Origin: Planctomycetales bacterium
Lineage (GTDB): Bacteria > Planctomycetota > Planctomycetia > Isosphaerales > Isosphaeraceae
Direction of reading: 5' to 3'
Length of the DNA: 64,000 bases
Assembly (NCBI GenBank): GCA_027451885.1
Contig: DAIDHX010000301.1
Location: forward strand, 1 to 64,000
Shown here one piece after another: positions 1 through 10,764 of the stretch (positions are counted from its first letter, which is position 1; every line of letters begins with the position of its first letter). Position numbers and translations under genes: made by a program. The notes below the pieces were generated by a model that saw nothing but the letters and a program-made list of their open reading frames with translations, was not told the origin of the DNA and did no database searches.

Positions 1-1
1 C

Positions 2-904
2 ATGGACTTCAGCGGTTCGGGGGCGCTCGAGGTGCGTTATTTGCAGGGTCCGACCGGGATCCTGGCGCGGGAGTCCGCGAGCGGTGTGATCGCGTGGTAT
101 CTGTCCGACCGGCTGGGCACGGTGTCGGACGTCATTGACAACTTGGGGAACGTGATCGACCACGTGGATTACACGGCGTTTGGGTCGGTGATCGACGAGA
201 CCGCGCCGGGCGCGGGGGATCGGTTCGTGAGCTTCGCGGGGCTTGTCCGCGACAACGTCACGGGCCTGAACCTGGCGATCGAGCGTGCGGAAAACCCCAC
301 GATCGGCCGCTGGACGCAGCAGGATCCGCTCTCCTTCGCCGCCGGGGATGCGAACCTGTATCGGTATGTGGGGAATGGGGCATCAGAGCATTCAGACCCG
401 TACGGGACGAGTCCCTACAGCGTCCTGGCTGTTCTCGAGACGGGTATGGTTGGTCCAGACGGGCCAGGTCGAAAACGCCCCATTCCACCTGCGCCTCCTC
501 TTACCAGGCGGAGGCGCCGCAACGCGGATCCAACGCCCCCTGGGTCGGTCGGCGGTAATCCGAATGACCGTAGGGGCTTACCATATCGTAACTTCTGCCG
601 AACCAATCCCGTCGCTCATCGCACGCCGCCAACGTCCTATTTCCATCGATATAAGGAATACAACCATCCACCTAATTTCGGCCCAAATGGAAATTTTCCA
701 CCCAGTCTCGGAATGGGGCCTCCGAAGATCGAGATCTCTCCGTTCGATGGCCCTGTGGTCAGGCCAGGCGACCCCATCAAAAACCCTACTCCGAGTCCCC
801 CGAGGCGTCGAAATGGAGGCCCAGCCGCTGGTCCTGGTCTCGGGCCCATCTTCGGCAATCCACCCGTCCCCGGCACACGCGTCCCGCCTGATCGACCAAG
901 CTAA
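2..904 (+). CDS. RHS-repeat protein, C-terminal part (5' end outside window)
   Basis: This is the 3' end of a large RHS/YD-repeat gene; the reading frame is open to the window edge, so the ATG at 2 need not be the start. Residues about 30-135 are the RHS-associated core: an S-D-x-L-G-T-V segment, a D-Y-x-x-F-G segment, then I-G-R-W-T-Q-Q-D-P-L and N-L-Y-R-Y-V-G-N leading to D-P-Y-G. In this family the core ends a secreted shell that often carries a variable C-terminal tip, commonly a toxin. The tip here (about 136-300) is rich in proline, arginine and glycine, and I recognise no nuclease, deaminase or protease motif in it. It may be an inert or unknown tip. No recognisable immunity gene follows; the next genes are 23-residue repeat proteins. 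Confidence 0.85.
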   Translation: MDFSGSGALEVRYLQGPTGILARESASGVIAWYLSDRLGTVSDVIDNLGNVIDHVDYTAFGSVIDETAPGAGDRFVSFAGLVRDNVTGLNLAIERAENPTIGRWTQQDPLSFAAGDANLYRYVGNGASEHSDPYGTSPYSVLAVLETGMVGPDGPGRKRPIPPAPPLTRRRRRNADPTPPGSVGGNPNDRRGLPYRNFCRTNPVAHRTPPTSYFHRYKEYNHPPNFGPNGNFPPSLGMGPPKIEISPFDGPVVRPGDPIKNPTPSPPRRRNGGPAAGPGLGPIFGNPPVPGTRVPPDRPS

Positions 905-1022
905 ATGGGGATGACGTCCTTCGAACACGGATCACCTGGAGCCTGGGTTTCAAGAAGATCGATCGAGATTCCTTTCGGCGTGAGGTCTACTTGATTCTCC
1001 GAATAACGATTGGAGCATGCCG

Positions 1023-1955
1023 ATGATCAATCAGCATCCGGGCCGGGGCCATGCCTGCATCTGGTCCAGGCTTGTCTCCCTGATGGATGTCTGCACCGTG
1101 ATTGTGGTCTCCTTGATCGTTCTGTTTGCTTTGAACACAAGTCGACGACCAGCCGTTCCGCTCGAGCTCGAAGCGACAGGTCTCAGCGTCGTCGACGCCA
1201 CGAGGCAGGAAAGAGGGTTCATCGGACCCATGGAGGACGATTCGTTTGGTTTGTCGTTGAGCGATGGGGCCGGGCGAGATGCGGCTGCTTTCCTTACATA
1301 CCCGAATGGAGTGTGTTGCCTCTCCCTGTCGGAGGGAAAAGAGGATCTGATTCGAATGGTGATTGGCACCGACGCATTTCCATACCTGGAACTCAAGTCG
1401 ATCGGTGCCAGGCAGAAGGTATGGGTCGGCGAAACCGATTCCGCCCCGGGACGGCCGACGGGGCGCCTTGTTCTTTCTGGAAGTCAGGATAAATCTGGAA
1501 GGCTGGAAATCTCGGTTGAGGAAGACCAATCATTTCTGTTCATCGGAGATCATCTGGGGATTCATGAGCACATCTGCCTCAGCCCCAACGAGATGGGCAC
1601 TTCTACCTTTTGCGTGCACGGAGGCGCGTTAGCTCGAAAGGTTGGTCTCGGCGATCAGAGCGGCGACCTTGGGCTTGCGCTCTGGCGTGAGCAGGGACCC
1701 CTCGAGTTCGGGGTCCTACTTGATCCTCAGGGAGATCCGTTTTGGTACGACTGGGCCGCGAAGCAGCTTTGGGGGGATTTAACTCGTCGCGGATGTCTTA
1801 CAGATTTCCCGTTTTTTCAACGCCAGCCGCGCGAGCGTCTTGCTCCTGGGATAGATCTCAGATCGCGGATAGAACCACTGGCCAGCGAGCCGGACCCGAG
1901 GTTTCGCGAGACACCTTCTACAGATTTACATGAGAGCAACTCATATGTTCGTTGA
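1023..1955 (+). CDS. Membrane-anchored 23-residue-repeat protein, divergent member
   Basis: Function unknown. An N-terminal hydrophobic helix (about residues 18-38, V-C-T-V-I-V-V-S-L-I-V-L-F) is followed by an extracytoplasmic region. It opens with an E-L-E-A-T-G-L-S-V-V-D stretch, like the start of the repeat region in the next gene. The first three units keep the spacing of about 23 residues with hydrophobic positions 1 and 3 and D/E near 5. Later units are irregular and hard to set in register. ATG 1023 is preferred to ATG 1017 because GGAG at 1012-1015 is 7 bases from 1023 but only 1 from 1017. The 3' end overlaps the start of the following paralog by 26 bases, which suggests translational coupling. 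I infer a cell-envelope role only from the anchor. Confidence 0.75.
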   Translation: MINQHPGRGHACIWSRLVSLMDVCTVIVVSLIVLFALNTSRRPAVPLELEATGLSVVDATRQERGFIGPMEDDSFGLSLSDGAGRDAAAFLTYPNGVCCLSLSEGKEDLIRMVIGTDAFPYLELKSIGARQKVWVGETDSAPGRPTGRLVLSGSQDKSGRLEISVEEDQSFLFIGDHLGIHEHICLSPNEMGTSTFCVHGGALARKVGLGDQSGDLGLALWREQGPLEFGVLLDPQGDPFWYDWAAKQLWGDLTRRGCLTDFPFFQRQPRERLAPGIDLRSRIEPLASEPDPRFRETPSTDLHESNSYVR

Positions 1956-2730
1956 GTTTCCGAATCAGCCCCCCCGCTCCAGATTCCTTGCGAAGCTCAG
2001 CCTGATGCTAAGGTCCGCGTTCTTGACGGCGCTGATCTCATTGCTGATGGGGTCGCGTTCAGATGACAAGAGCGCACCGGCCAGGGAGCTTGAGGCGCAG
2101 CGTTTTGTCGTGAAGGACGCGGCGGGGCGTGCGCGATCGGTGTTTGGTGTAGGCCCGGAGGGAAGCGTCTCGCTGGAGCTTTTTGATGCCAGGGGCGTGG
2201 CTCGCGGGTGGATGACGGCTCCCGAAAAAGGCGGTGTGGCATTTAGCCTTGCTGACGAGAACCAAACGGTCAGGCTCTGGCTCTGTATCGACTCAAAGCA
2301 AGAACCCTACATCATTCTCAGGGGCGCTGACGGCACCAGGCGACTGATGCTAACCTGCGAAAGGGACGGTGCAGAGGATGTGGCCTCGATCCATCTCCTG
2401 AATAAGAAGGAAGAAGATCAACTCGTTCTCGTCGCTGGTTCAGATGGCAAGGCTTATCTACAAGCCTACGGCGCTCAGGCCAACGGCTCGTATGTCACGG
2501 TCGGGACGGACGACAAGTCGCCGCCGCGAATCGAAATCAGAGACCCGTCCCAGCAAAGAGTCGTCGTCCTGGGCGAGATGGCAGCGGCCTCGAATTTCGG
2601 CCTGACGCTCCGTGACGCCAACGGACCCAGGATCACGCTCGGTTTCAATGGCTCGGGCAAACCGTCGCTTCAGTTCCCGAGTCCACCTCCCAAACCGAAT
2701 GGACACCCATCGCTCGTGTCTACTAAGTAG
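1930..2730 (+). CDS. Exported 23-residue-repeat protein
   Basis: Function unknown. A basic N-terminus and a hydrophobic segment (about residues 22-41) look like a signal peptide or anchor. The rest is about eight units of roughly 23 residues (lengths counted 23, 23, 23, 26, 23, 24, 24, 22). Each starts with alternating hydrophobic residues, then D or N, then G near position 8, a second pair of hydrophobic residues, and often G near position 20. This pattern suggests stacked short beta strands, perhaps a beta solenoid; that is inference. The start overlaps the previous gene by 26 bases. ATG 1945 is also possible and neither start has a strong ribosome site. It is closely related in plan to the genes at 1023, 7228 and 8161. 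Confidence 0.8.
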   Translation: MRATHMFVEFPNQPPRSRFLAKLSLMLRSAFLTALISLLMGSRSDDKSAPARELEAQRFVVKDAAGRARSVFGVGPEGSVSLELFDARGVARGWMTAPEKGGVAFSLADENQTVRLWLCIDSKQEPYIILRGADGTRRLMLTCERDGAEDVASIHLLNKKEEDQLVLVAGSDGKAYLQAYGAQANGSYVTVGTDDKSPPRIEIRDPSQQRVVVLGEMAAASNFGLTLRDANGPRITLGFNGSGKPSLQFPSPPPKPNGHPSLVSTK

Positions 2731-2951
2731 CTCACAGGTCGAGGCTGAACAGAACAGTTGCTTTCGATCCCCGGGTTTTACTCCACCTCTACTACCAGGG
2801 GCACCTGGGTGGAAGTACGGATATGGACTCTTCGATGAGGGCTACGATTCTCGCAAGTATGACAGGTGAGGTAACAGAAAAGAGTCTTACGACCCTCCAG
2901 TACTTTATCTCCTTCCGATTGGTTCGCACTGACCGAGATTTGGGAGGCGTC

Positions 2952-3191
2952 ATGTCGCTTCTACGATGCAAGCGTCGTAAGAGAGTGCTGTGCATGGCCC
3001 TGCTGTGTGTGGTGCTATTCGGCGTTCTTCTCGCCCTGGCCTATAGAATGGTCATGATAGGGAGAGGCCTTGAAGAATTGTATGGACCCAGTGGTATGCT
3101 CGAAAAAGAGAGAGTGCGTTCATTTAAGGACTGGAAACTCTCGCACCCGGAGTGGACCGACCCCTCGATTGCTCCCTTACCAAACGATTAA
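2952..3191 (+). CDS. Small single-pass membrane protein, unknown function
   Basis: A 79-residue protein with a basic N-terminus (C-K-R-R-K-R), one strong hydrophobic helix (about residues 14-34) and a short polar tail containing an L-Y-G-P-S-G segment. The start at 2952 has GGGAGG at 2942-2947 just upstream, better than the upstream in-frame ATG at 2823. It follows the repeat-protein pair by about 220 bases on the same strand and may belong to the same unit. I recognise no family. The tail ends close to the convergent restriction-endonuclease gene. Confidence 0.5.
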   Translation: MSLLRCKRRKRVLCMALLCVVLFGVLLALAYRMVMIGRGLEELYGPSGMLEKERVRSFKDWKLSHPEWTDPSIAPLPND

Positions 3192-3551
3192 GCAGCACAC
3201 ATAGGTGATCACAGAATGCCTGCAGCGCTGTTGATGCAAACGCTCTGGTGTAGCGATTCAGATTGTTGGGGTGCTATCCAGCATTTGCCTTACCCTGCGT
3301 ACCTTCACCAAAATCTCATTGGGCATCACCTTCCAGCGATAACCTTCGGTCTGATCTTTGTGAGTGCAGAAGAAGCCACCCAGGAACAGGAGTCGCGACA
3401 CTGGCTGATGATCCGCTCGCGATCGAACATGCGAGAAATCGATGATCGCTCTACCTGGCCTGCCGAGAACGGGCCTGGTACATGGAAAATGGGTGTCTTG
3501 TGCGGGCCCGTTGTTCAAACGAATGGCCCTAGATCTGGCCCGTTCTCCGCT
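3192..3551. other. Gene-free stretch between convergent genes
   Basis: About 360 bases separate the small membrane protein gene from the 3' end of the nuclease gene on the other strand. Reading frames here have no recognisable product and one of them runs into the nuclease gene antisense. I found no convincing hairpin terminator or terminal repeat. Confidence 0.4.
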
Positions 3552-4604
3552 CTAAGACGTCGGCTCTTGTGTTCGAGTTTGGAATTCCCGCAGCCGTGTC
3601 CACTGGATCAGATGATTTAGATTTTCGAGTGTGAACACCTTACCCTGCGTCGCCAGCAGCAGTTTCTTCATGTCCTCACGCCGTACCTTAAAGCCGCGTC
3701 CGGCGATGCAGGCGATGACCTCGAAACGTGGCGGCTCACCTGGCTTGACATCCATCAGGCTCAACGCCCTCAGGTGCTGCACGCGAGTTACCTTGTCGCG
3801 GGCCGTGCCGTCGTCCTCGGTAACTTTGGCTTCGATGACGACCTGGGGGCTGAACTCATCGGGCACGATGAAATCAGGTGCCTGATCGAATCCGCTCACC
3901 CGCTCCGCCCGCTTGGTTTTCCGGAAGCTTACGCCGGATCGGGTCAGCACGCCCTCGATGGCCGTCTCGACCACATCGCCGACCAACTCGCTGACGGAAT
4001 CGCGGTGCCCGGCGAACGGTCGGCCCAGGAAACGCTCATACAGCACCATCGCATAGGGCACGCCGAGATCGGCCATCGGCCGGATGCTGGCCAGCCCGTT
4101 GCGGGTATCGGCCTTGTCCATCCTGTGCAGCACATCCTTCGGCACTTTCGGCACACCCTCCTTCAGAAGCTCGCAGGCGGTGTTGACCAACGCACGCAAC
4201 CGCTGGTCAGTGACCTGGCTCAACGTCCCCAATGGCGTCAGTGGTTGCATGCGAATCTTGCGGTCAAGCGAGCGGACAGCCCCTTGCGTGACTTCCACCC
4301 CGGCACGCTGGCCGGTGACGTAGGCCCATTCCGGAGGCGTGAAGCCGAGCACTGCCCGCAGCACGACGAACGCCACTGGAACGCGGCTAATCACATCGAG
4401 CACAGCGGCCGGAGTGATATTTCGGAAATTCACAGTCCCCTTTTTTAGTTCCTCATATCCCCGCTCAAACACCGGGTATTCGACAAAGCCCGGTCCTTTG
4501 GGCAGCGTCAGGAACTCCGATCGGAGGCACGCGAACACTGAATCCACATATGTGTCTAATTCTTCCTGAAGTTGCTCGAACGGAACCTCAAAGGGAAACG
4601 GCAT
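3552..4604 (-). CDS. Putative type II restriction endonuclease, PD-(D/E)XK fold
   Basis: A 350-residue protein read directly after a DNA methyltransferase. Near residues 243-260 it has P-D-F-I-V-P, then V-V-I-E-A-K-V-T. This is the spacing of a PD-(D/E)XK nuclease core (D about 244, E 258, K 260), followed by a D-K-V-T-R-V-Q-H-L helix. No ATPase or helicase motif is present, which fits a stand-alone type II enzyme; its recognition site cannot be read from sequence. ATG 4604 is chosen because AGGA lies 8 bases upstream; the frame is also open to ATGs at 4613 and 4646. It overlaps the methyltransferase stop by 17 bases, so the pair is probably co-translated. A modification-linked nuclease of another type cannot be excluded. 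Confidence 0.7.
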   Translation of the reverse strand: MPFPFEVPFEQLQEELDTYVDSVFACLRSEFLTLPKGPGFVEYPVFERGYEELKKGTVNFRNITPAAVLDVISRVPVAFVVLRAVLGFTPPEWAYVTGQRAGVEVTQGAVRSLDRKIRMQPLTPLGTLSQVTDQRLRALVNTACELLKEGVPKVPKDVLHRMDKADTRNGLASIRPMADLGVPYAMVLYERFLGRPFAGHRDSVSELVGDVVETAIEGVLTRSGVSFRKTKRAERVSGFDQAPDFIVPDEFSPQVVIEAKVTEDDGTARDKVTRVQHLRALSLMDVKPGEPPRFEVIACIAGRGFKVRREDMKKLLLATQGKVFTLENLNHLIQWTRLREFQTRTQEPTS

Positions 4605-6774
4605 CGCGGTCATCCTGCGGAAAAAGCTGCATCTGGCGTGGAACACCCGAGAATGTCGGTGCCGCGACCAGGTGATCTATCAGCCACTGAGCGTCGCCAA
4701 GTGAGGCGAACATGCGGGCAAAGCGTTCGAGGCGGGCCGATGCGGGCAGAGTGCCTTCCCAGTTTTGCCGCAGTCGTCCAATCGCATAACGGGCCAGGTG
4801 CCCAAACACCATGCAGCGAATATCACCCGCCGTCGGCTTCATTCCGGCCTTCCGCAGCATCGACAGTTCGGCCTGCATCACCGTCTCTAGCTCTCCCAGT
4901 GAGCCGAATGCCTGCCCCGGCCGCGTGCATCCCTGCGTCCGGCAAACGAATATCGTATCCACAATCGACGATCCAGTGCCGTGGATGTGGATGGAGCCGC
5001 CCATTTCAGCGGGACAAGGAAGCGTTGCCAGGCAAATCAGACCCGCATCGAGGATTGCCACGCCCACGGAGTGATAGGGTTCGATCCGGTTATGATGGAA
5101 AGTGAAGGCGAGCGGAGCGCCCGGCTTCAAAGCCCGCGACATGGCCCGCCACACGGCGGCTAGCCCATCGGTGAAATGCTCGATGCCGCGTGCTTGCGTC
5201 GCGTTGCCCGTCAGCTCCTCTGGAGCCCGCGACGATGGTAGGAGGAAGCCCTCGGTTTCCTCCCCCACCAACCGACGCAGCCAGACATAGCAGAAATCCA
5301 TCAACTCACCGTATTGGACGTTCCCGAAGTACGGTGGGTCTGTAAACACCGCATCCAGGCTCGATGGCAGCAGGTTTGCAGTGGTCGAACTGGCACAACG
5401 TAGCGTCACTGACCGCGTCGCAGAACCACTTCTCCTCTCGCCGATCCATTCGCCGTGTACAGGCACTGTCGTTTTGCGGCGGCCATCATGACGAACTTCA
5501 AAAGGCGCGTCGCAATAGCGCTTGGCCCGCGTGTATTTCTCGATTATGTTGGTCCAGCCGCCAGAGCCAACATTGGCCCCGTTGCCGTTGACAATGCCCA
5601 GCAGGTTCGACTCGCATTCCACCAGCCCGACCGGGAAGCCGTGGACCGAGAAAATGTCCAATGACTTCAGTGCGGTCGTGTCATAGCGGCAGAGCATATT
5701 CTGATAGCGCAGCAAGTCCGAAAGATTGGTCGCCAGAGCGTGCCGCACCCGTTCATCTCCCGTCTCAGCAATCTGACGGCAGCTCAGTTCTAGTCCCAAG
5801 AGCTGCCGCTCGTTGAATAACTCCCTGTAGAATCGGTATCCCCAGCGGTGCAGCCGATCGGTTTCGTCGCCTGGCAGGATTTCCTGATGCGGAACGAAGG
5901 TCGGAGACATGGATCGCCAGCGGCGAGTGACCGCCTCTACCTGCTTCAAATCATTAGCGTCGGGCTTCTTGAAAAACCGGCCTTTATGCCGCCCGTGATG
6001 CTTGGGATTGAAATACTCAATTGCGAACAGACGATGAAGTGGCGGACCCTGATCGGGTCGAGCATACGCGTTGTCGGCCCCGCAATGCGGGCAGGCACAG
6101 CGGCCCCGCTTGGCAGGGCCCTCGATCACCAAGGCACTGGCGCAGCCGAAGCATTGGCCCGGATGTCGCGCGTCGGCCACTTCGTTCAATTCGCCGCAGA
6201 CGGAGCAGACCAAGACATTGGCGGAGTGGCGGGTATCGTCAGCCAGGAGGTAGCCGGGAAACAAGTCGATTTGCTGGCCGCATTGATGGCAATCGACCAC
6301 TTTCACCCACAAGAAATACTTCACGGGAACGCCCGTATCGCCGTAACGCGGGCAGTCTGTTCGGTATGCCGCTCCGATCTCTTGTTGAAGGCGGGCCAGT
6401 AGCCCGGCAGATGCCTTGCGATAAGCTTCCAGATCGAGATGGCCGACCTCCTCGCGGACGATCCATGTCGCCATTGGGTTGATGTCGAACCCAACTATGT
6501 CGCAGCCGACGCGGTTGGCTTCGATCAACGGCGTTCCGCCGCCCATGAACGGGTCGGCAATGACGCGGCCCGAAAAATCGTTCGCCTCAAAGTAGGATTC
6601 CGTCAGCGGACGGTTGCCGAACTCGGCGAGGATCAGCCCCCTAAACAACGTGCCCGGCCGCCGGGCAAACCACTTGTGCACGGCGATGATCGGACGGTAG
6701 TTCTGTTGAATCTGCTTCTCTTTGAGTGCCAGCGAAGCGATCAAGCTTATATCAAAGTCGTTTTCAATGTTCAT
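4588..6774 (-). CDS. DNA methyltransferase with zinc ribbons, COG1743/DUF1156-like
   Basis: A 728-residue S-adenosylmethionine-dependent DNA methylase, most likely N6-adenine. The N-terminus has an H-K-W-F-A-R-R-P segment (about 33-40), then the cofactor motif D-P-F-M-G-G-G-T (about 74-81) followed by D-I-V-G-F-D-I-N-P. The catalytic T-D-P-P-Y is near residue 480. Between them are four C-x-x-C pairs (about 162-231) making zinc ribbons, as in the adenine-specific methylases grouped as COG1743. Motif order (cofactor first, DPPY later) is of the alpha type. The start could be ATG 6774 or GTG 6789; both have weak ribosome sites. It is the first gene of a two-gene restriction-modification operon with the nuclease at 3552-4604. 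Flanking genes on both sides belong to one repeat-protein family, which suggests the system was inserted there. Confidence 0.85.
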   Translation of the reverse strand: MNIENDFDISLIASLALKEKQIQQNYRPIIAVHKWFARRPGTLFRGLILAEFGNRPLTESYFEANDFSGRVIADPFMGGGTPLIEANRVGCDIVGFDINPMATWIVREEVGHLDLEAYRKASAGLLARLQQEIGAAYRTDCPRYGDTGVPVKYFLWVKVVDCHQCGQQIDLFPGYLLADDTRHSANVLVCSVCGELNEVADARHPGQCFGCASALVIEGPAKRGRCACPHCGADNAYARPDQGPPLHRLFAIEYFNPKHHGRHKGRFFKKPDANDLKQVEAVTRRWRSMSPTFVPHQEILPGDETDRLHRWGYRFYRELFNERQLLGLELSCRQIAETGDERVRHALATNLSDLLRYQNMLCRYDTTALKSLDIFSVHGFPVGLVECESNLLGIVNGNGANVGSGGWTNIIEKYTRAKRYCDAPFEVRHDGRRKTTVPVHGEWIGERRSGSATRSVTLRCASSTTANLLPSSLDAVFTDPPYFGNVQYGELMDFCYVWLRRLVGEETEGFLLPSSRAPEELTGNATQARGIEHFTDGLAAVWRAMSRALKPGAPLAFTFHHNRIEPYHSVGVAILDAGLICLATLPCPAEMGGSIHIHGTGSSIVDTIFVCRTQGCTRPGQAFGSLGELETVMQAELSMLRKAGMKPTAGDIRCMVFGHLARYAIGRLRQNWEGTLPASARLERFARMFASLGDAQWLIDHLVAAPTFSGVPRQMQLFPQDDRDAVSL

Positions 6775-6827
6775 GTCATCTTTTTTCACTGAATCGGCGT
6801 GGCACGGCCCTGCCGCGAGGCGACCCT

Positions 6828-6884
6828 AGTATACAAAAAGGCACAGCACAAGCCAGGGTGTGCTATCTCTGAGATTATTATCTC
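6828..6884 (-). promoter_or_regulatory. Candidate methyltransferase promoter with alternating half-sites
   Basis: On the - strand a TATACT hexamer (6833 to 6828) could be the -10 box for the methyltransferase. Upstream of it, 6865-6884 reads as three 5-base half-sites in alternating orientation: ATCTC, one base, GAGAT, four bases, ATCTC. Such an arrangement can bind a dimeric regulator. No -35 hexamer with good spacing was found, and no separate control-protein gene is present, so any regulator would be the methylase itself or a distant protein. Confidence 0.3.
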
Positions 6885-7227
6885 GGTTCTCGGCTTATTT
6901 TTGCTTTCCTATTCTCCCAGACAGTCCGGTCGTTCGAACCCTGCGGGGCTGTCGGAGAAGAGAGCAAAAGAAAAGAAGGCAAAAGAAGACACCCCAGAAC
7001 GGCGGAGAAGAAAGACGCAGAAGAAGACACACAAGGAGCCGGCTGGTGCGCTCGGCCTGGCCCGCGGAGAATCGGCCTGGCTTCTTCTGACCCTTCGTCA
7101 TCACATCTTGCCCATCGCAACCCGCAAGGAAAGCATTCCCGGGAGCAACCCCTGGTAAAGGGACATCGAAGAATGAAGAATTGTGACGGAAAGAATTGCA
7201 CCCACTGATCGTCAAGGAGTTCGATCG
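6885..7227. other. Gene-free stretch with purine-rich tract
   Basis: Roughly 340 bases precede the repeat gene at 7228. Positions about 6952-7035 are almost all A and G on the + strand, with repeated AAG and GAAG triplets. A frame running through it would give a lysine/arginine-rich low-complexity peptide that I do not believe is a gene. No terminal inverted repeats marking a mobile element edge were seen. Confidence 0.4.
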
Positions 7228-8157
7228 ATGCGACGCTCAACTGTTTCGGTGGCCGTGATCGCGACCGCTGTCCTGATCGCGTTTCGTCTGGGTAGTGCTC
7301 AGGCGAGGCAAGAGAAGCCGGCGCAGGAGCTGTCTGTGCAAGGGCTCAACCTGGTCGACGGACAGGGCCGGGTGATGGGGAGCTTGAGGCTCACGGAGAA
7401 GGGAGATCCGGTACTCGAGTTCATGAATCGCGATGGTAAGAAGGTTGCGGTGATGGCGGTCGACCCAGGCGGAGGGGCGCGCTTCTCGCTGAACGGACCG
7501 CGAGGCGACAGGAGGTTTTCGGTGGGTGTGAGCGAGGACGGCGAGTCGAGCCTCCGGATTCATGATGGCAAGGGGCAAGAGGTTTACAGGATTCTGGCGA
7601 CGGCCCGGGGAGCTGTGCGGCAAGAACTTCTGGATCGTGATGGAGCAGTACGCATTCGCTCCAGCGTGACTGAGGACGGCTGGGCCGAGCATGCGCTTTA
7701 CCACGAAAAAGGCGTTGCCGGATACGAAACGCGCGTGAGCCGGGCGGGCGAGGTCTTGCAGACCTTCCGTGATCGTACGGGGAAGCCCAGACTGGGGATT
7801 GGCATGAGCGCGAAGAATGAGGCCAGGCTGGATCTCTTCGACGCAGGAGGGAAACGGCGAGGAGGAATGCGCGCTGAGCCGGGCGGGCGCAGCGAGCTCA
7901 CCCTGGCCGATGATTCCGGGCGCTCGAGGGCGGCTCTGAGCGTCGACGGTGACGGGGCTCCCTCCATCCGAATGTGGAATCGGGATGGGATCGAAACGGT
8001 TGTGCTTTCCAGTCTCGAGACCGGCTTCAGCGGGCTCCGGCTGACGGATTCCCAGGGAGCGGCGTCCGTTCGATTGGGCGTGGACGAGCATGGGCAGCCC
8101 GCGCTCAACCTCGCTCCCGTCCTGGAATCCACTCCACAAAACAAGGAAGGTAAGTAA
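7228..8157 (+). CDS. Exported protein made of eleven gapless 23-residue repeats
   Basis: A 309-residue protein of unknown function. ATG 7228 is chosen because AAGGAG lies just upstream and the protein then begins with a signal peptide (M-R-R-S-T-V then a hydrophobic core to A-Q-A). From residue 40 to 292 the chain is exactly eleven 23-residue units without a single insertion. Position 8 is G in all eleven units and position 20 is G in ten. Positions 1, 3, 14 and 16 are mostly hydrophobic, position 5 is usually D or N, and R or K often follow the first G. The regularity suggests a beta solenoid in the periplasm or on the cell surface. It is followed after 3 bases by another family member, so the two are surely co-transcribed. 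Confidence 0.9.
   Translation: MRRSTVSVAVIATAVLIAFRLGSAQARQEKPAQELSVQGLNLVDGQGRVMGSLRLTEKGDPVLEFMNRDGKKVAVMAVDPGGGARFSLNGPRGDRRFSVGVSEDGESSLRIHDGKGQEVYRILATARGAVRQELLDRDGAVRIRSSVTEDGWAEHALYHEKGVAGYETRVSRAGEVLQTFRDRTGKPRLGIGMSAKNEARLDLFDAGGKRRGGMRAEPGGRSELTLADDSGRSRAALSVDGDGAPSIRMWNRDGIETVVLSSLETGFSGLRLTDSQGAASVRLGVDEHGQPALNLAPVLESTPQNKEGK
7345..8103 (+). repeat. Eleven tandem coding repeats of 69 bases
   Basis: In-frame tandem repeat coding for the 23-residue unit described in the gene at 7228-8157. Copies are diverged at DNA and protein level, so the array is old or under diversifying drift, but its length register is perfect over 759 bases. Confidence 0.85.
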
Positions 8158-8160
8158 GAC

Positions 8161-9147
8161 ATGGTGCACTTACCGTATCGCTCTCTGACGAAACGGATGT
8201 CAGCGCTCGCGGAGCCGGGCTTGCTTCTGTTGCTACTCGTGATCGTGGATGCGATTCTCTCCGCCTACCTCGACATGCCGCGCACCCGTGGTGAACAGGC
8301 CGAGAAGGGTGTGATTTCGCTGCGGAGGCTGAGCCTGCGCGACAACCAGGGACGCGACAGGCTCAATCTCGGCGTGGGAGCTTCGGGGGATGCATTTCTT
8401 CAGATCCTGGATGTCTCGGAATTCCCCCTGGTATCGCTCGTCCCTTACCAGACGGGGAACATGATCCTTGGTCTGTCCGATAAGAACGCGAGGAATGGAC
8501 CCGCGCTGGGGATCCGTGAGGACGGCGCGAGTGGCATCTGGTTGGTTACGAACTGGGACACGCTCTATTACGCGCGTTGTGGCGCTGATGGATTCGTCCG
8601 CGAGGTTTTCTGGGACCGGGAATCAAGAGAGCGTGAAGCCCGTGGCGCTGCTCCCAGGGATGGCAGCCATCGTCTTTCCAACCGCATCCTGAGCGACGGC
8701 GAGGTCTTCAGCTCGATCTTCATGGGTACGGGAGGCCGACCCTCCGTCAACCGCATATGTGGAAAGTACAACTATTCGCGCGTGGAACTCCGCTCGCCGG
8801 ATCGGCGCATCGGGCTCGAACTGGGGCTCAACGAGTCCGGTACAGCCTCGCTCGATCTTGGCGACCGTTTTGGCACATTGCGCGCATCCTTTGCGTGCCA
8901 CTCTCTGGGAAACACAACCTTCCGGCTGTTCGACCCGGGAGGCAAGGAACGGCTCTCGCTGGGGTCAGTTGCGACAACCTGGCTTACGCTCCGGGGCCAA
9001 AGTCACGCTCGACCTGTCCTGCTAGGCATGAGAGGCGAGACGGGCGAATGCGCATGTCTGGTGGTGTCCGACGCTCAGGAGACCGAGCAAACCGTGCTCA
9101 GGATTGACCGGCGGTCGGGACCAGCGCTGCTGATGTCCCCACGCTGA
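8161..9147 (+). CDS. Membrane-anchored 23-residue-repeat protein
   Basis: A 328-residue protein of unknown function, second gene of a pair with the eleven-repeat protein 3 bases upstream. A strongly hydrophobic helix (residues about 18-36, G-L-L-L-L-L-L-V-I-V) anchors it. The outside part starts with three regular 23-residue units. Then comes a diverged centre with several tryptophans, tyrosines and cysteines (about residues 115-205), and about five further units of 21-25 residues. The centre may be a distinct inserted domain. The family plan (anchor, linker, repeats) matches the genes at 1023 and 1930. Confidence 0.8.
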   Translation: MVHLPYRSLTKRMSALAEPGLLLLLLVIVDAILSAYLDMPRTRGEQAEKGVISLRRLSLRDNQGRDRLNLGVGASGDAFLQILDVSEFPLVSLVPYQTGNMILGLSDKNARNGPALGIREDGASGIWLVTNWDTLYYARCGADGFVREVFWDRESREREARGAAPRDGSHRLSNRILSDGEVFSSIFMGTGGRPSVNRICGKYNYSRVELRSPDRRIGLELGLNESGTASLDLGDRFGTLRASFACHSLGNTTFRLFDPGGKERLSLGSVATTWLTLRGQSHARPVLLGMRGETGECACLVVSDAQETEQTVLRIDRRSGPALLMSPR

Positions 9148-9649
9148 GAGAGGCCCCCGTCGCGTCGGTGGACTCGATGATTGGAAGGTCTGCCCCAGCA
9201 AGCGGAACGTCCCTTGCGACACGGAGTCGATCCGCGTCCTCGTCTCGTGCATCCTTCGCCTCATCCTGGAGATGCAGGCGCGGTTGGGCGCGCTGGCCGC
9301 CAACAGGATGCGCGGCTGGCGATCACTGGGGCCGCCGTCGAGGTTGACCACGAACGGCTCCAGCCGCTTCTCAGGGCACGCGCTGCTTCTCAGGTTGCAC
9401 GGAAAAGCCCTCCGAATCGCGCGATGAATCGGACCAAAGGGCAATTTCCGCTTCCGATTCCCGGAACGGCGCTGAGCGATCTGAGACGGTGTTGAAAAAA
9501 ATCATCGACATTTCACGTAAGTTGTTTCTCACAAGCAACGTTGCGCGGATCCGCGGTTTCTGACAATTGATGATCATTTATACATTTCCTCACTCTAAAC
9601 TGAATCGGAGACAAGAGTCTCGATTCGCAACTCATTCCCTGGTGGACAC
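9148..9649. other. Gene-free stretch upstream of PEP-CTERM pseudogene
   Basis: About 500 bases without a recognisable gene; frames here give arginine- and proline-rich peptides typical of shadows. The right part (about 9500-9600) is A/T-richer. It holds a perfect 12-base palindrome, CGCGGATCCGCG, at 9544-9555 and a small GTTG/CAAC hairpin before it. It may contain the old promoter of the decayed gene at 9650. Confidence 0.35.
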
Positions 9650-9886
9650 ATGGCCTCACGACTGGGACATGCGTAGGTCATCGCCGGTTGGGTGCCGGCG
9701 CTGATTGGCGGCATTGACATTGCAAGCGCACAGGCCGGCATGGTGATGACTTCGGGCAAAATGAGGCCCATCGCGGATCCGACCTACCGATCCATTTTCC
9801 GGCTCGAGCTGACCCCGGGCGCAACGCTCGATACGGGTGGTTCCATCACGATTTATGACTTGCCGGGCGTGTATTCGGGAGCGTAG
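9650..9886 (+). pseudogene. Decayed, truncated copy of the PEP-CTERM protein gene
   Basis: From ATG 9650 the frame reads M-A-S-R-L-G-H-A then a TAG at 9674-9676. After the stop the same frame continues as a clear match to residues 10-80 of the intact protein at 10171. It includes R-P-I-A-D-P-T-Y against M-P-I-G-D-P-T-Y and Y-D-L-P-G-V-Y in both. By eye about 25 of 39 residues agree over the best part. A second TAG (9884-9886) ends the similarity, so the C-terminal half and the PEP-CTERM anchor are missing. A short protein from GTG 9692 is conceivable but would lack the signal peptide start. I read this as a tandem duplicate that lost function. Confidence 0.75.
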
Positions 9887-10170
9887 CCGAATAATTTCGT
9901 CGACGCATCGGGGGCAGCGCAACGCATTCAAAGTCTGAATGCGTTCGTAGTTCGGTCGCGCGACCGCGGGGGCGCGATCTCGCTCGGTGTCTCAGCGGAG
10001 TTTAGCAGCGAATTCCGTGATCGAATGACTCGGGCTGCCCCCTGTTCCCAAAAAGCAACATGAGGTCAATCCATCATTGCTCGCCAAGGAGCAACGTTGA
10101 TATACTCAGATCGCCTTGCGTGTTCTCGAGATCGGTCGACTCCGTTCGTCACTCGTTTGATGGAGGAGAC

Positions 10171-10764
10171 ATGGCATCACGACTGGGACGTGTATCTCTC
10201 ATCGCTGGATGCGTTGCGGCTCTGATTAGCTTCGGTGGGTTTGCCACGGCTCACGGTGGCATCGTGATCGGCTCTGGCCGGGTCATGCCGATCGGTGACC
10301 CAACATATGAGTACGTGTTTGACGTTCAGCTCACGGGCGGGACGACGTTGAATACGGGTGGTTACATCACGGTCTACGACCTTCCCGGCGTGTACGCGGG
10401 GTCGACCACTTCTCAGCCGAGTCTGTTGTGGGGCGCGAGCATCCAGTATCTGGGGATCACGCCAACCGGTACTCCCACGATCACGGATAGCGCGTCCATT
10501 TACAACGTGACCTGGCAGTGGAACGGTCCCACGGTCACCAACGAAGGCACGGGAAACGTGGACCTGGGCAACTTTGTGATCACGACGAATTTGACGTCAC
10601 CGCCGGCACCCACGCTGGTGTATGTGGGGTCGCTCGGCGGCAATCAGTATTCGAACATGGGGCTCGTGATTGTTCCCGAGCCTTCCTCGGCCCTCTTGCT
10701 CGGCTCGGCGGGAGTTCTTGTGCCTGCCGCCGTAACTCTCAGGCGGCGTCGCAGGAGAGTCTGA
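10171..10764 (+). CDS. PEP-CTERM sorted exported protein
   Basis: A 197-residue secreted protein. Residues 1-28 are a signal peptide. The C-terminus has the sorting signal V-P-E-P-S-S-A, a hydrophobic helix, and a run of arginines (R-R-R-R-R-R-V), which in this family is cut and handled by an exosortase. No exosortase gene is in the window. ATG 10171 is chosen because TGGAGGAG lies just upstream and the signal peptide begins there. The body is rich in Gly, Thr and Tyr with no known catalytic motif, so the role in the envelope or matrix is unknown. A decayed paralog lies directly upstream. A weak promoter-like TATACT is at 10101-10106 next to a TTGCTC/GAGCAA hairpin (10077-10094). Confidence 0.85.
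   Translation: MASRLGRVSLIAGCVAALISFGGFATAHGGIVIGSGRVMPIGDPTYEYVFDVQLTGGTTLNTGGYITVYDLPGVYAGSTTSQPSLLWGASIQYLGITPTGTPTITDSASIYNVTWQWNGPTVTNEGTGNVDLGNFVITTNLTSPPAPTLVYVGSLGGNQYSNMGLVIVPEPSSALLLGSAGVLVPAAVTLRRRRRRV

What the first reader, a model, noticed from the sequence alone, without database searches (positions are those of the whole stretch)
1023..9147. Four paralogous anchored repeat proteins in two pairs
Genes at 1023, 1930, 7228 and 8161 share one plan: N-terminal membrane helix or signal, short linker, and units of about 23 residues. They differ strongly in sequence and in how regular the units are. A local, diverging family of surface proteins next to an RHS gene suggests cell-contact, adhesion or self-recognition roles.
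Basis: partly seen in the sequence, partly recalled or inferred. Interest (0 to 1): 0.6.

Follow-up and report, generated by a model that had tools for sequence, protein, structure and literature searches.

The report
Anchored beta-ribbon pairs beside RHS tips
Four neighbouring genes encode membrane-anchored proteins built from 23-residue beta-hairpins, probably long one-layer protein ribbons, and their relatives tend to sit right behind the variable tips of RHS cell-contact proteins, where immunity or partner genes are normally found.

Summary
Lag 23 is the strongest or near-strongest self-similarity in all four proteins; P0003 is eleven 23-residue units without an indel. A profile built without the window finds exactly these four among 952 other ORFs, but P0001's E-value is no better than a reversed-sequence control. 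They are not local: the genome holds at least 17 such genes in nine loci, eight of them tandem pairs that duplicate as pairs. P0003 is predicted as a single-layer beta-sheet, like OspA, MORN and CPAP-TCP; no Pfam family covers it. RHS association is real: 6 of 59 relatives' loci lie within 4 kb of an RHS core, against 0.29 expected, and 6 of 9 in this genome. In 8 of 156 RHS genes the repeat gene directly follows the RHS tip, the immunity slot of rhs-CT/rhsI modules. The tips are mostly proline-rich, yet the only held-out case was proline-poor, so no proline rule holds. Best reading: exoplasmic anchored ribbons that recognise RHS tips, as immunity or docking partners. Function is inferred. New variant of a known kind.

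The parts
2..904 (+). 3' part of an RHS gene (cut by the contig start); Rhs_assc_core at residues 57-135, then a 167-residue proline-rich tail
   Evidence: TIGR03696 E 1.4e-12; contig begins at window base 1; tail 24% proline
1..404 (+). RHS core DNA repeated at 92-98% identity in several other places of the genome
407..904 (+). variable RHS C-terminal tip, 27-34% identical to the tips of C58 and C34 behind a 98% identical core
1023..1955 (+). P0001, first gene of pair a: membrane helix (17-35) then 23-residue beta units
   Evidence: z 5.1 at lag 23; AF2 confident only about residues 50-115
1930..2730 (+). P0002, second gene of pair a, overlapping P0001 by 26 bases
   Evidence: z 4.7 at lag 23; held-out HMM 5e-20
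7228..8157 (+). P0003, first gene of pair b: signal or anchor segment then eleven 23-residue units
7345..8103 (+). the eleven in-register 23-residue units of P0003 (residues 40-292)
   Evidence: two strands per unit predicted, pLDDT mostly above 90
8161..9147 (+). P0004, second gene of pair b: membrane helix (21-39) then irregular 23-residue units
   Evidence: z 3.7 at lag 23; held-out HMM 4e-30

Best explanation
The four genes are two copies of a recurring two-gene unit. Each protein is held in the cytoplasmic membrane, or exported, by one N-terminal segment and carries outside the cytoplasm a ribbon of 23-residue beta-hairpins that stack edge to edge into a long single-layer beta-sheet (shown by prediction for P0003, inferred for the others). 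The unit belongs to the orphan rhs-CT type of locus: a homogenised RHS core, a polymorphic tip, and directly behind it a partner gene or pair. I infer that the ribbon faces of the pair bind the tip of the RHS protein encoded upstream, most likely protecting the cell from its own tip or docking it at the envelope, and that pairs without an RHS (pair b here) are orphaned partner genes kept after loss or displacement of their tip. Steps shown: repeat, anchor segment, pairing, paired duplication, RHS adjacency. Step predicted: fold. Steps inferred: topology, binding, immunity or docking.
For: Repeat and family. Fold: AF2 of P0003, mean pLDDT 83.4, two strands per unit; Foldseek best hit engineered OspA E 2.3e-11; VIA Z 15.8 over 254 residues to 2fkj_A, about 13 to MORN1 and CPAP-TCP. 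Pair as a unit: for C2/C3, C71/C303 and C34/C58 both first genes and both second genes of the pair group together; 5 of these 6 joins are starred at 97-100% bootstrap, and C34_5580 with C58_8267 falls in one open fork at 89/91. RHS slot: RHS stop to repeat gene about 9-250 bases in 8 RHS genes of six genomes in four genera. Polymorphic module: core 98-100%, tip 27-59% identical among C301, C34 and C58, partner proteins 30 and 48% identical between C34 and C58. Known precedent: rhs-CT/rhsI modules, CT toxic and neutralised by the gene immediately downstream (PMC3150448, abstract and passages). No T6SS sheath gene PF05943 was found in this genome, with E. coli ringing as control, and the long RHS frames of this genome (C158, C18) start in repetitive, beta-helix-like sequence (my reading), so RHS here may act at the surface.
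Against: Most relatives' repeat genes (52 of 59 loci) are more than 6 kb from any listed RHS core, and two of the nine own loci (C2, C71) have no RHS core in the stretch fetched, so the family is not dedicated to RHS. Of 156 RHS genes only 8 have the repeat gene directly behind. None of the six tip-bearing RHS genes scanned matched a toxin family in Pfam. Immunity genes are usually specific to each toxin (general knowledge), whereas here one family follows tips that are unrelated to each other except C34-C58. Nothing here tests binding.
Confidence: 0.42

Rival explanations
1. General envelope scaffold or adhesion ribbons of Isosphaeraceae. The family does a job unrelated to RHS; copies near RHS are there because recombining RHS arrays pick up and spread neighbouring genes.
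For: 52 of 59 relatives' loci are not near a listed RHS core; single-copy forms with an N-terminal coiled coil (by eye), one membrane helix and very regular units occur away from RHS and also in Methylomirabilota, Acidobacteriales and other Planctomycetota records.
Against: RHS proximity exceeds chance in relatives and own genome, with 5 of the 6 cases within 4 kb on the same strand and downstream, which hitchhiking alone would not impose.
Confidence: 0.35
2. Proline-tail dock: the single-layer sheet binds the proline-rich RHS tail in the way the single-layer TCP domain of CPAP binds a proline-rich motif of STIL, holding the RHS shell at the membrane.
For: In the first set 7 of 7 RHS genes with the repeat gene directly behind had tips of 14-31% proline, median 0.19 against 0.07 in 98 others, one-sided rank test P 4e-5. 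CPAP TCP is a single-layer sheet and a proline recognition domain (PMC3776556, abstract and passages) and is among the best structural matches.
Against: The only new case in the held-out set, G059:C938, has a proline-poor tip (0.5%, the lowest of 44; helical by eye), followed by a repeat pair. Pooled P falls to 8e-4, relatives alone to 0.02. 14 of 138 tips without the gene are equally proline-rich. The idea was formed on the first set.
Confidence: 0.12
3. Two unrelated sets: P0002-P0004 are one family, while P0001 only shares a common beta-hairpin period by convergence.
For: P0001's held-out E 3e-6 lies within the range of reversed sequences; AF2 of P0001 is poor, pLDDT 53.9.
Against: z 5.1 at exactly lag 23; phmmer P0001 to P0002 E 5e-6; similar start after the anchor (ELEA...VxDA...R, seen directly); it is the first gene of a pair as in seven other loci.
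Confidence: 0.1

Closest known systems
OspA and engineered OspA/PSAM single-layer beta-sheets
   Same: Units of two strands forming one free-standing sheet; best Foldseek and VIA match of P0003; weak sequence match E 0.009
   Different: Eleven natural units in P0003, more than in native OspA (recalled); no lipobox cysteine in P0003; bacteria unrelated to Borrelia; rmsd 6-9 A over the long ribbon
MORN repeats (MORN1, junctophilin)
   Same: Short beta-hairpin repeats (about 23 residues, recalled) in one layer, VIA Z about 13 for MORN1 and 11 for junctophilins
   Different: No MORN Pfam match at E<=1
TCP10/G-box domain of CPAP
   Same: Single-layer sheet of about 20 strands (PMC3776556); VIA Z 13.4 over 169 residues
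   Different: Eukaryotic centriole protein; no sequence match listed
rhs-CT/rhsI (and cdiA-CT/cdiI) orphan modules
   Same: Near-identical core, variable tip, partner gene directly downstream, arrays of displaced modules (PMC3150448)
   Different: Partner is often a pair of anchored ribbon proteins of one family; no toxin shown; no T6SS sheath gene found
RHS/teneurin YD shells
   Same: Also beta-hairpin repeats; several RHS and teneurin chains in the Foldseek list from E 1.9e-8
   Different: TM-score only about 0.2 or less; no RHS_repeat Pfam match in the four proteins at E<=1

Membership tests
Single-layer beta-sheet fold (OspA type) | about 23-residue two-strand units | tested here: met
   Lag-23 periodicity; 6+7 residue strands with 5-residue turns in the P0003 model
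Single-layer beta-sheet fold (OspA type) | global structural match of the ribbon | tested here: met
   P0003 only: VIA Z 15.8, 254 residues aligned, rmsd 6.3. P0001 model too poor; P0002 and P0004 not predicted
OspA lipoprotein family | lipobox cysteine and sequence homology | tested here: not met
   No cysteine at the end of the P0003 signal segment; phmmer E only 0.009
MORN repeat family | Pfam MORN match | tested here: not met
   No such family at E<=1 for P0001-P0004
rhs-CT/rhsI module | conserved core followed by a polymorphic tip | tested here: met
   Core 98-100%, tips 27-59% identical between C301, C34 and C58
rhs-CT/rhsI module | partner gene immediately downstream on the same strand | tested here: met
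   8 of 156 RHS genes, among them C301, C34 and C58 of this genome; not met for pair b, C2 and C71
rhs-CT/rhsI module | tip is toxic and the downstream protein neutralises it | not testable with these tools
   Needs expression and competition assays; no toxin Pfam family in the six RHS genes scanned
RHS/YD repeat family (for the ribbon proteins) | YD repeat sequence match | tested here: not met
   No RHS_repeat match at E<=1; profile-profile comparison not run

The most novel reading that the evidence does not exclude
Planctomycetes without a T6SS sheath carry a tip-recognition system made of extendable single-layer beta-ribbons: two paralogous anchored ribbons per RHS tip, whose unit number and face residues diverge with the tip, act as a modular recognition surface for self RHS tips, including proline-rich ones.
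Probability: 0.22. Interest if true: 0.8.

Novelty: new variant of a known kind. Interest (0 to 1): 0.55.

Why it matters
It would give a large, unnamed family of natural long single-layer beta-sheets, a fold best known from OspA and from engineered repeats of it, and a possible partner for RHS proteins in a family of bacteria rich in RHS genes, in a genome where no T6SS sheath gene was found. Both the fold and the partner role can be tested directly with one tip and one pair.

Tried and rejected
Family searches: Pfam, NCBIfam, PHROGs and PADLOC gave no family for the four proteins above a curated cut-off or at a convincing E-value; Rfam gave nothing in 1-10000. A viral-contig scan found no relative. 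The first genome-contig scan with the P0003-type profile found none; a second with the regular single-copy type found 8.

Proline rule: formed on the first 112 RHS genes, then tested on 44 RHS genes of 14 further genomes searched for the purpose (44 of 50 listed; the six left out include the five below the family cut-off); the one new case contradicted it, so it was demoted to a rival. In the first set, 7 records were dropped as cut off or with tips under 40 residues, leaving 105; pooled, 146 of 156 were used. Five own RHS pieces (C303, C103, C156, C296, C135) were not in the set because they are broken or at contig ends.

Descent of the ribbons from YD repeats: suggested by the Foldseek list, not supported by Pfam; a profile-profile test was not run. 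Structure of P0001: poor model, not used for a fold search.

The null for RHS proximity assumes uniform placement and rounded genome sizes; own-genome copies are partly duplicates of one another, so the P of 6e-11 overstates independence. The search profile A1 was trained on own-genome members, several of them RHS-linked, which may favour finding RHS-linked relatives. Literature: searches for Planctomycetes with RHS and YD repeat, Isosphaeraceae with RHS, single-layer OspA 23-residue, Rhs with proline-rich and immunity, planctomycete giant genes or YD repeat, single-layer MORN OspA, and Rhs with membrane-anchored immunity listed no paper that I recognised as describing this family; only listings were read for these, apart from PMC3150448 (abstract and passages).

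Full report
What is there. The window is the start of contig C301 of a 6.18 Mb, 316-contig genome; the closest relatives that could be named are Isosphaeraceae, Planctomycetota. Four plus-strand genes, P0001 1023-1955, P0002 1930-2730, P0003 7228-8157 and P0004 8161-9147, each encode one N-terminal hydrophobic segment followed by a soluble repeat region. P0001 and P0002 overlap by 26 bases; P0003 and P0004 are three bases apart. An RHS gene, cut by the contig start, ends at 904, 118 bases before P0001.

The repeat. Against 2000 shuffles, lag 23 is the top lag in P0001 (z 5.1), P0002 (4.7) and P0004 (3.7), and lags 46, 23 and 69 dominate in P0003 (9.6, 8.1, 8.0); the best-lag test gives 0, 3, 0 and 43 of 2000 for P0001 to P0004. 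P0003 residues 40-292 read as eleven 23-residue units with no indel. In the whole set of 17 own-genome members, 13 of 17 have a best lag that at most 0.4% of shuffles reach, and four do not (C3 6989, C2 6437, C103, C58 7351).

One family, not local. Iterated profiles over 965 ORFs of 15 stretches give 17 members in nine loci, with an eighteenth weak one on C293. A profile of the 13 non-window members picks out exactly the four window genes from the other 952 ORFs. Reversed sequences of family members score up to 5.5e-7, presumably because the hairpin pattern reads similarly backwards, so P0001's 3e-6 is not proof by itself. Eight loci are tandem pairs. First genes and second genes of C2/C3, C71/C303 and C34/C58 group in parallel; five of the six joins are starred at 97-100 bootstrap, the sixth (C34_5580 with C58_8267) sits in an open fork of 89/91. 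The pair therefore seems to duplicate as a unit. Window pair b joins the C2/C3 group by its first gene (93/92, not starred); pair a is on long branches.

Fold. AlphaFold2 on P0003 with eight relatives gives mean pLDDT 83.4, about 94 in most of the repeat, with strands of 6 and 7 residues alternating. Foldseek's best PDB matches are engineered OspA sheets (E 2.3e-11), with Rhs and teneurin shells and MORN1 following. VIA-align gives Z 15.8 to 2fkj_A over 254 residues at 6.3 A, and about 13 to MORN1 and to the TCP domain of CPAP. The best of these are single-layer sheets of hairpins, so I read P0003 as a long free-standing ribbon. For P0001 the model is poor except residues 50-115, where the same strand spacing appears after a membrane helix. 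P0002 and P0004 were not predicted. No Pfam, NCBIfam, PHROG or PADLOC family applies.

RHS linkage in this genome. The DNA of the RHS core (window 1-404) recurs at 92-98% identity on C34, C88, C58, C3 and C296, with shorter pieces on C303, C103, C135 and C156. Behind this core the tips differ: C301, C34 and C58 share 98-100% of the last 55 core residues but only 27-59% of the tip. Repeat pairs follow the tip directly in C301, C34 and C58, and a single member follows a broken RHS on C103, all on the RHS strand. In C3 the pair lies between RHS modules and in C303 it lies 1.7 kb behind a broken one. C2, C71 and pair b of the window have none directly upstream. Six of nine loci are within 4 kb of an RHS core piece; 0.09 would be expected, with the caveat that copies are partly duplicates.

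RHS linkage in relatives. With profile A1, 31 of 59 genomes (the own one included) have a match at E<=1e-5. In the 30 relatives these form 59 loci; 138 RHS cores were listed for the same genomes. Three loci lie within 2 kb (0.17 expected), six within 4 kb (0.29 expected, simulated P 5e-6), seven within 6 kb (0.40 expected); five of the six within 4 kb are on the same strand and downstream. Of 156 RHS genes examined for what follows (112, 44), eight have a repeat gene directly behind the stop codon: G000 C301, C34 and C58, G001 C337, G034 C296, G004 C40 (weak, E 1.4e-7), G018 C85 and G059 C938. Six genomes and four genera are involved. G059 C938 shows a full tandem pair behind a tip, in another genus.

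The proline idea and its failure. The first seven such tips were all proline-rich (14-31%, median 0.19 against 0.07 in 98 others, P 4e-5), and the TCP domain of CPAP is a single-layer sheet that recognises a proline-rich motif (PMC3776556, abstract and passages read). I therefore fetched a further set of RHS genes. Its only new case, G059 C938, has a tip with 0.5% proline. Pooled significance falls to 8e-4 and, without the own genome, to 0.02. A tendency may remain, but it is not a rule, and the partner gene follows tips of different chemistry.

Interpretation. The architecture matches orphan rhs-CT/rhsI modules, in which tips are toxic and the gene immediately downstream protects (PMC3150448, abstract and passages read). 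The partner here is probably exported or anchored with its ribbon outside the cytoplasm, which fits a tip acting at the envelope. This genome has no match to the T6SS sheath family PF05943, while E. coli rang in the control set, and its two long RHS frames begin in repetitive, beta-helix-like sequence (my reading of the sequence), so surface display is plausible. I rank tip recognition (immunity or docking) first at 0.42, a general envelope role with RHS hitchhiking second at 0.35. That most relatives' copies lie away from RHS keeps the second alive.

Novelty. Fold and module type are both known kinds; what is new is a natural, unnamed family of long single-layer ribbons in the RHS partner slot, often as pairs.

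Noticed in passing
window 3552-6789 (-): Between the two pairs lie a DUF1156-type DNA methyltransferase (NCBIfam NF042963 E 7e-29, below its cut-off; PADLOC DUF1156_MTase E 1e-23) and a companion of unknown family with a D...EAK motif that recalls a PD-(D/E)XK nuclease (recalled): a possible small defence island.
   Followed up: partly
window 3245-3521: A dispersed DNA repeat, about 140 bases at 79-84% identity, found on C34, C3, C138, C218, C71, C88 and other contigs, several of them RHS or repeat-pair contigs; no Rfam match, no tandem array.
   Followed up: partly
window 1: The contig begins inside an RHS core that is repeated in the genome; some other contigs also begin or end in this core (C296, C135, C34), so RHS arrays seem broken by the assembly.
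   Followed up: partly
L034 5651-12874: An array of three short RHS core-plus-tip genes with different tips, each followed by a different small protein, two of them with membrane or signal segments; one tip is glycine-rich and hydrophobic.
   Followed up: partly
L081 7662-9560: A 632-residue relative in G010 with a coiled coil (by eye), a membrane helix and very regular 23-residue units, 4 kb from an RHS core.
   Followed up: no
L102 1394-2173, L103 2330-3016: Regular members of the family in Methylomirabilota MAGs, so the repeat is not confined to Planctomycetota.
   Followed up: no
window 10060-10764: PEP-CTERM protein (TIGR02595 above its cut-off).
   Followed up: no
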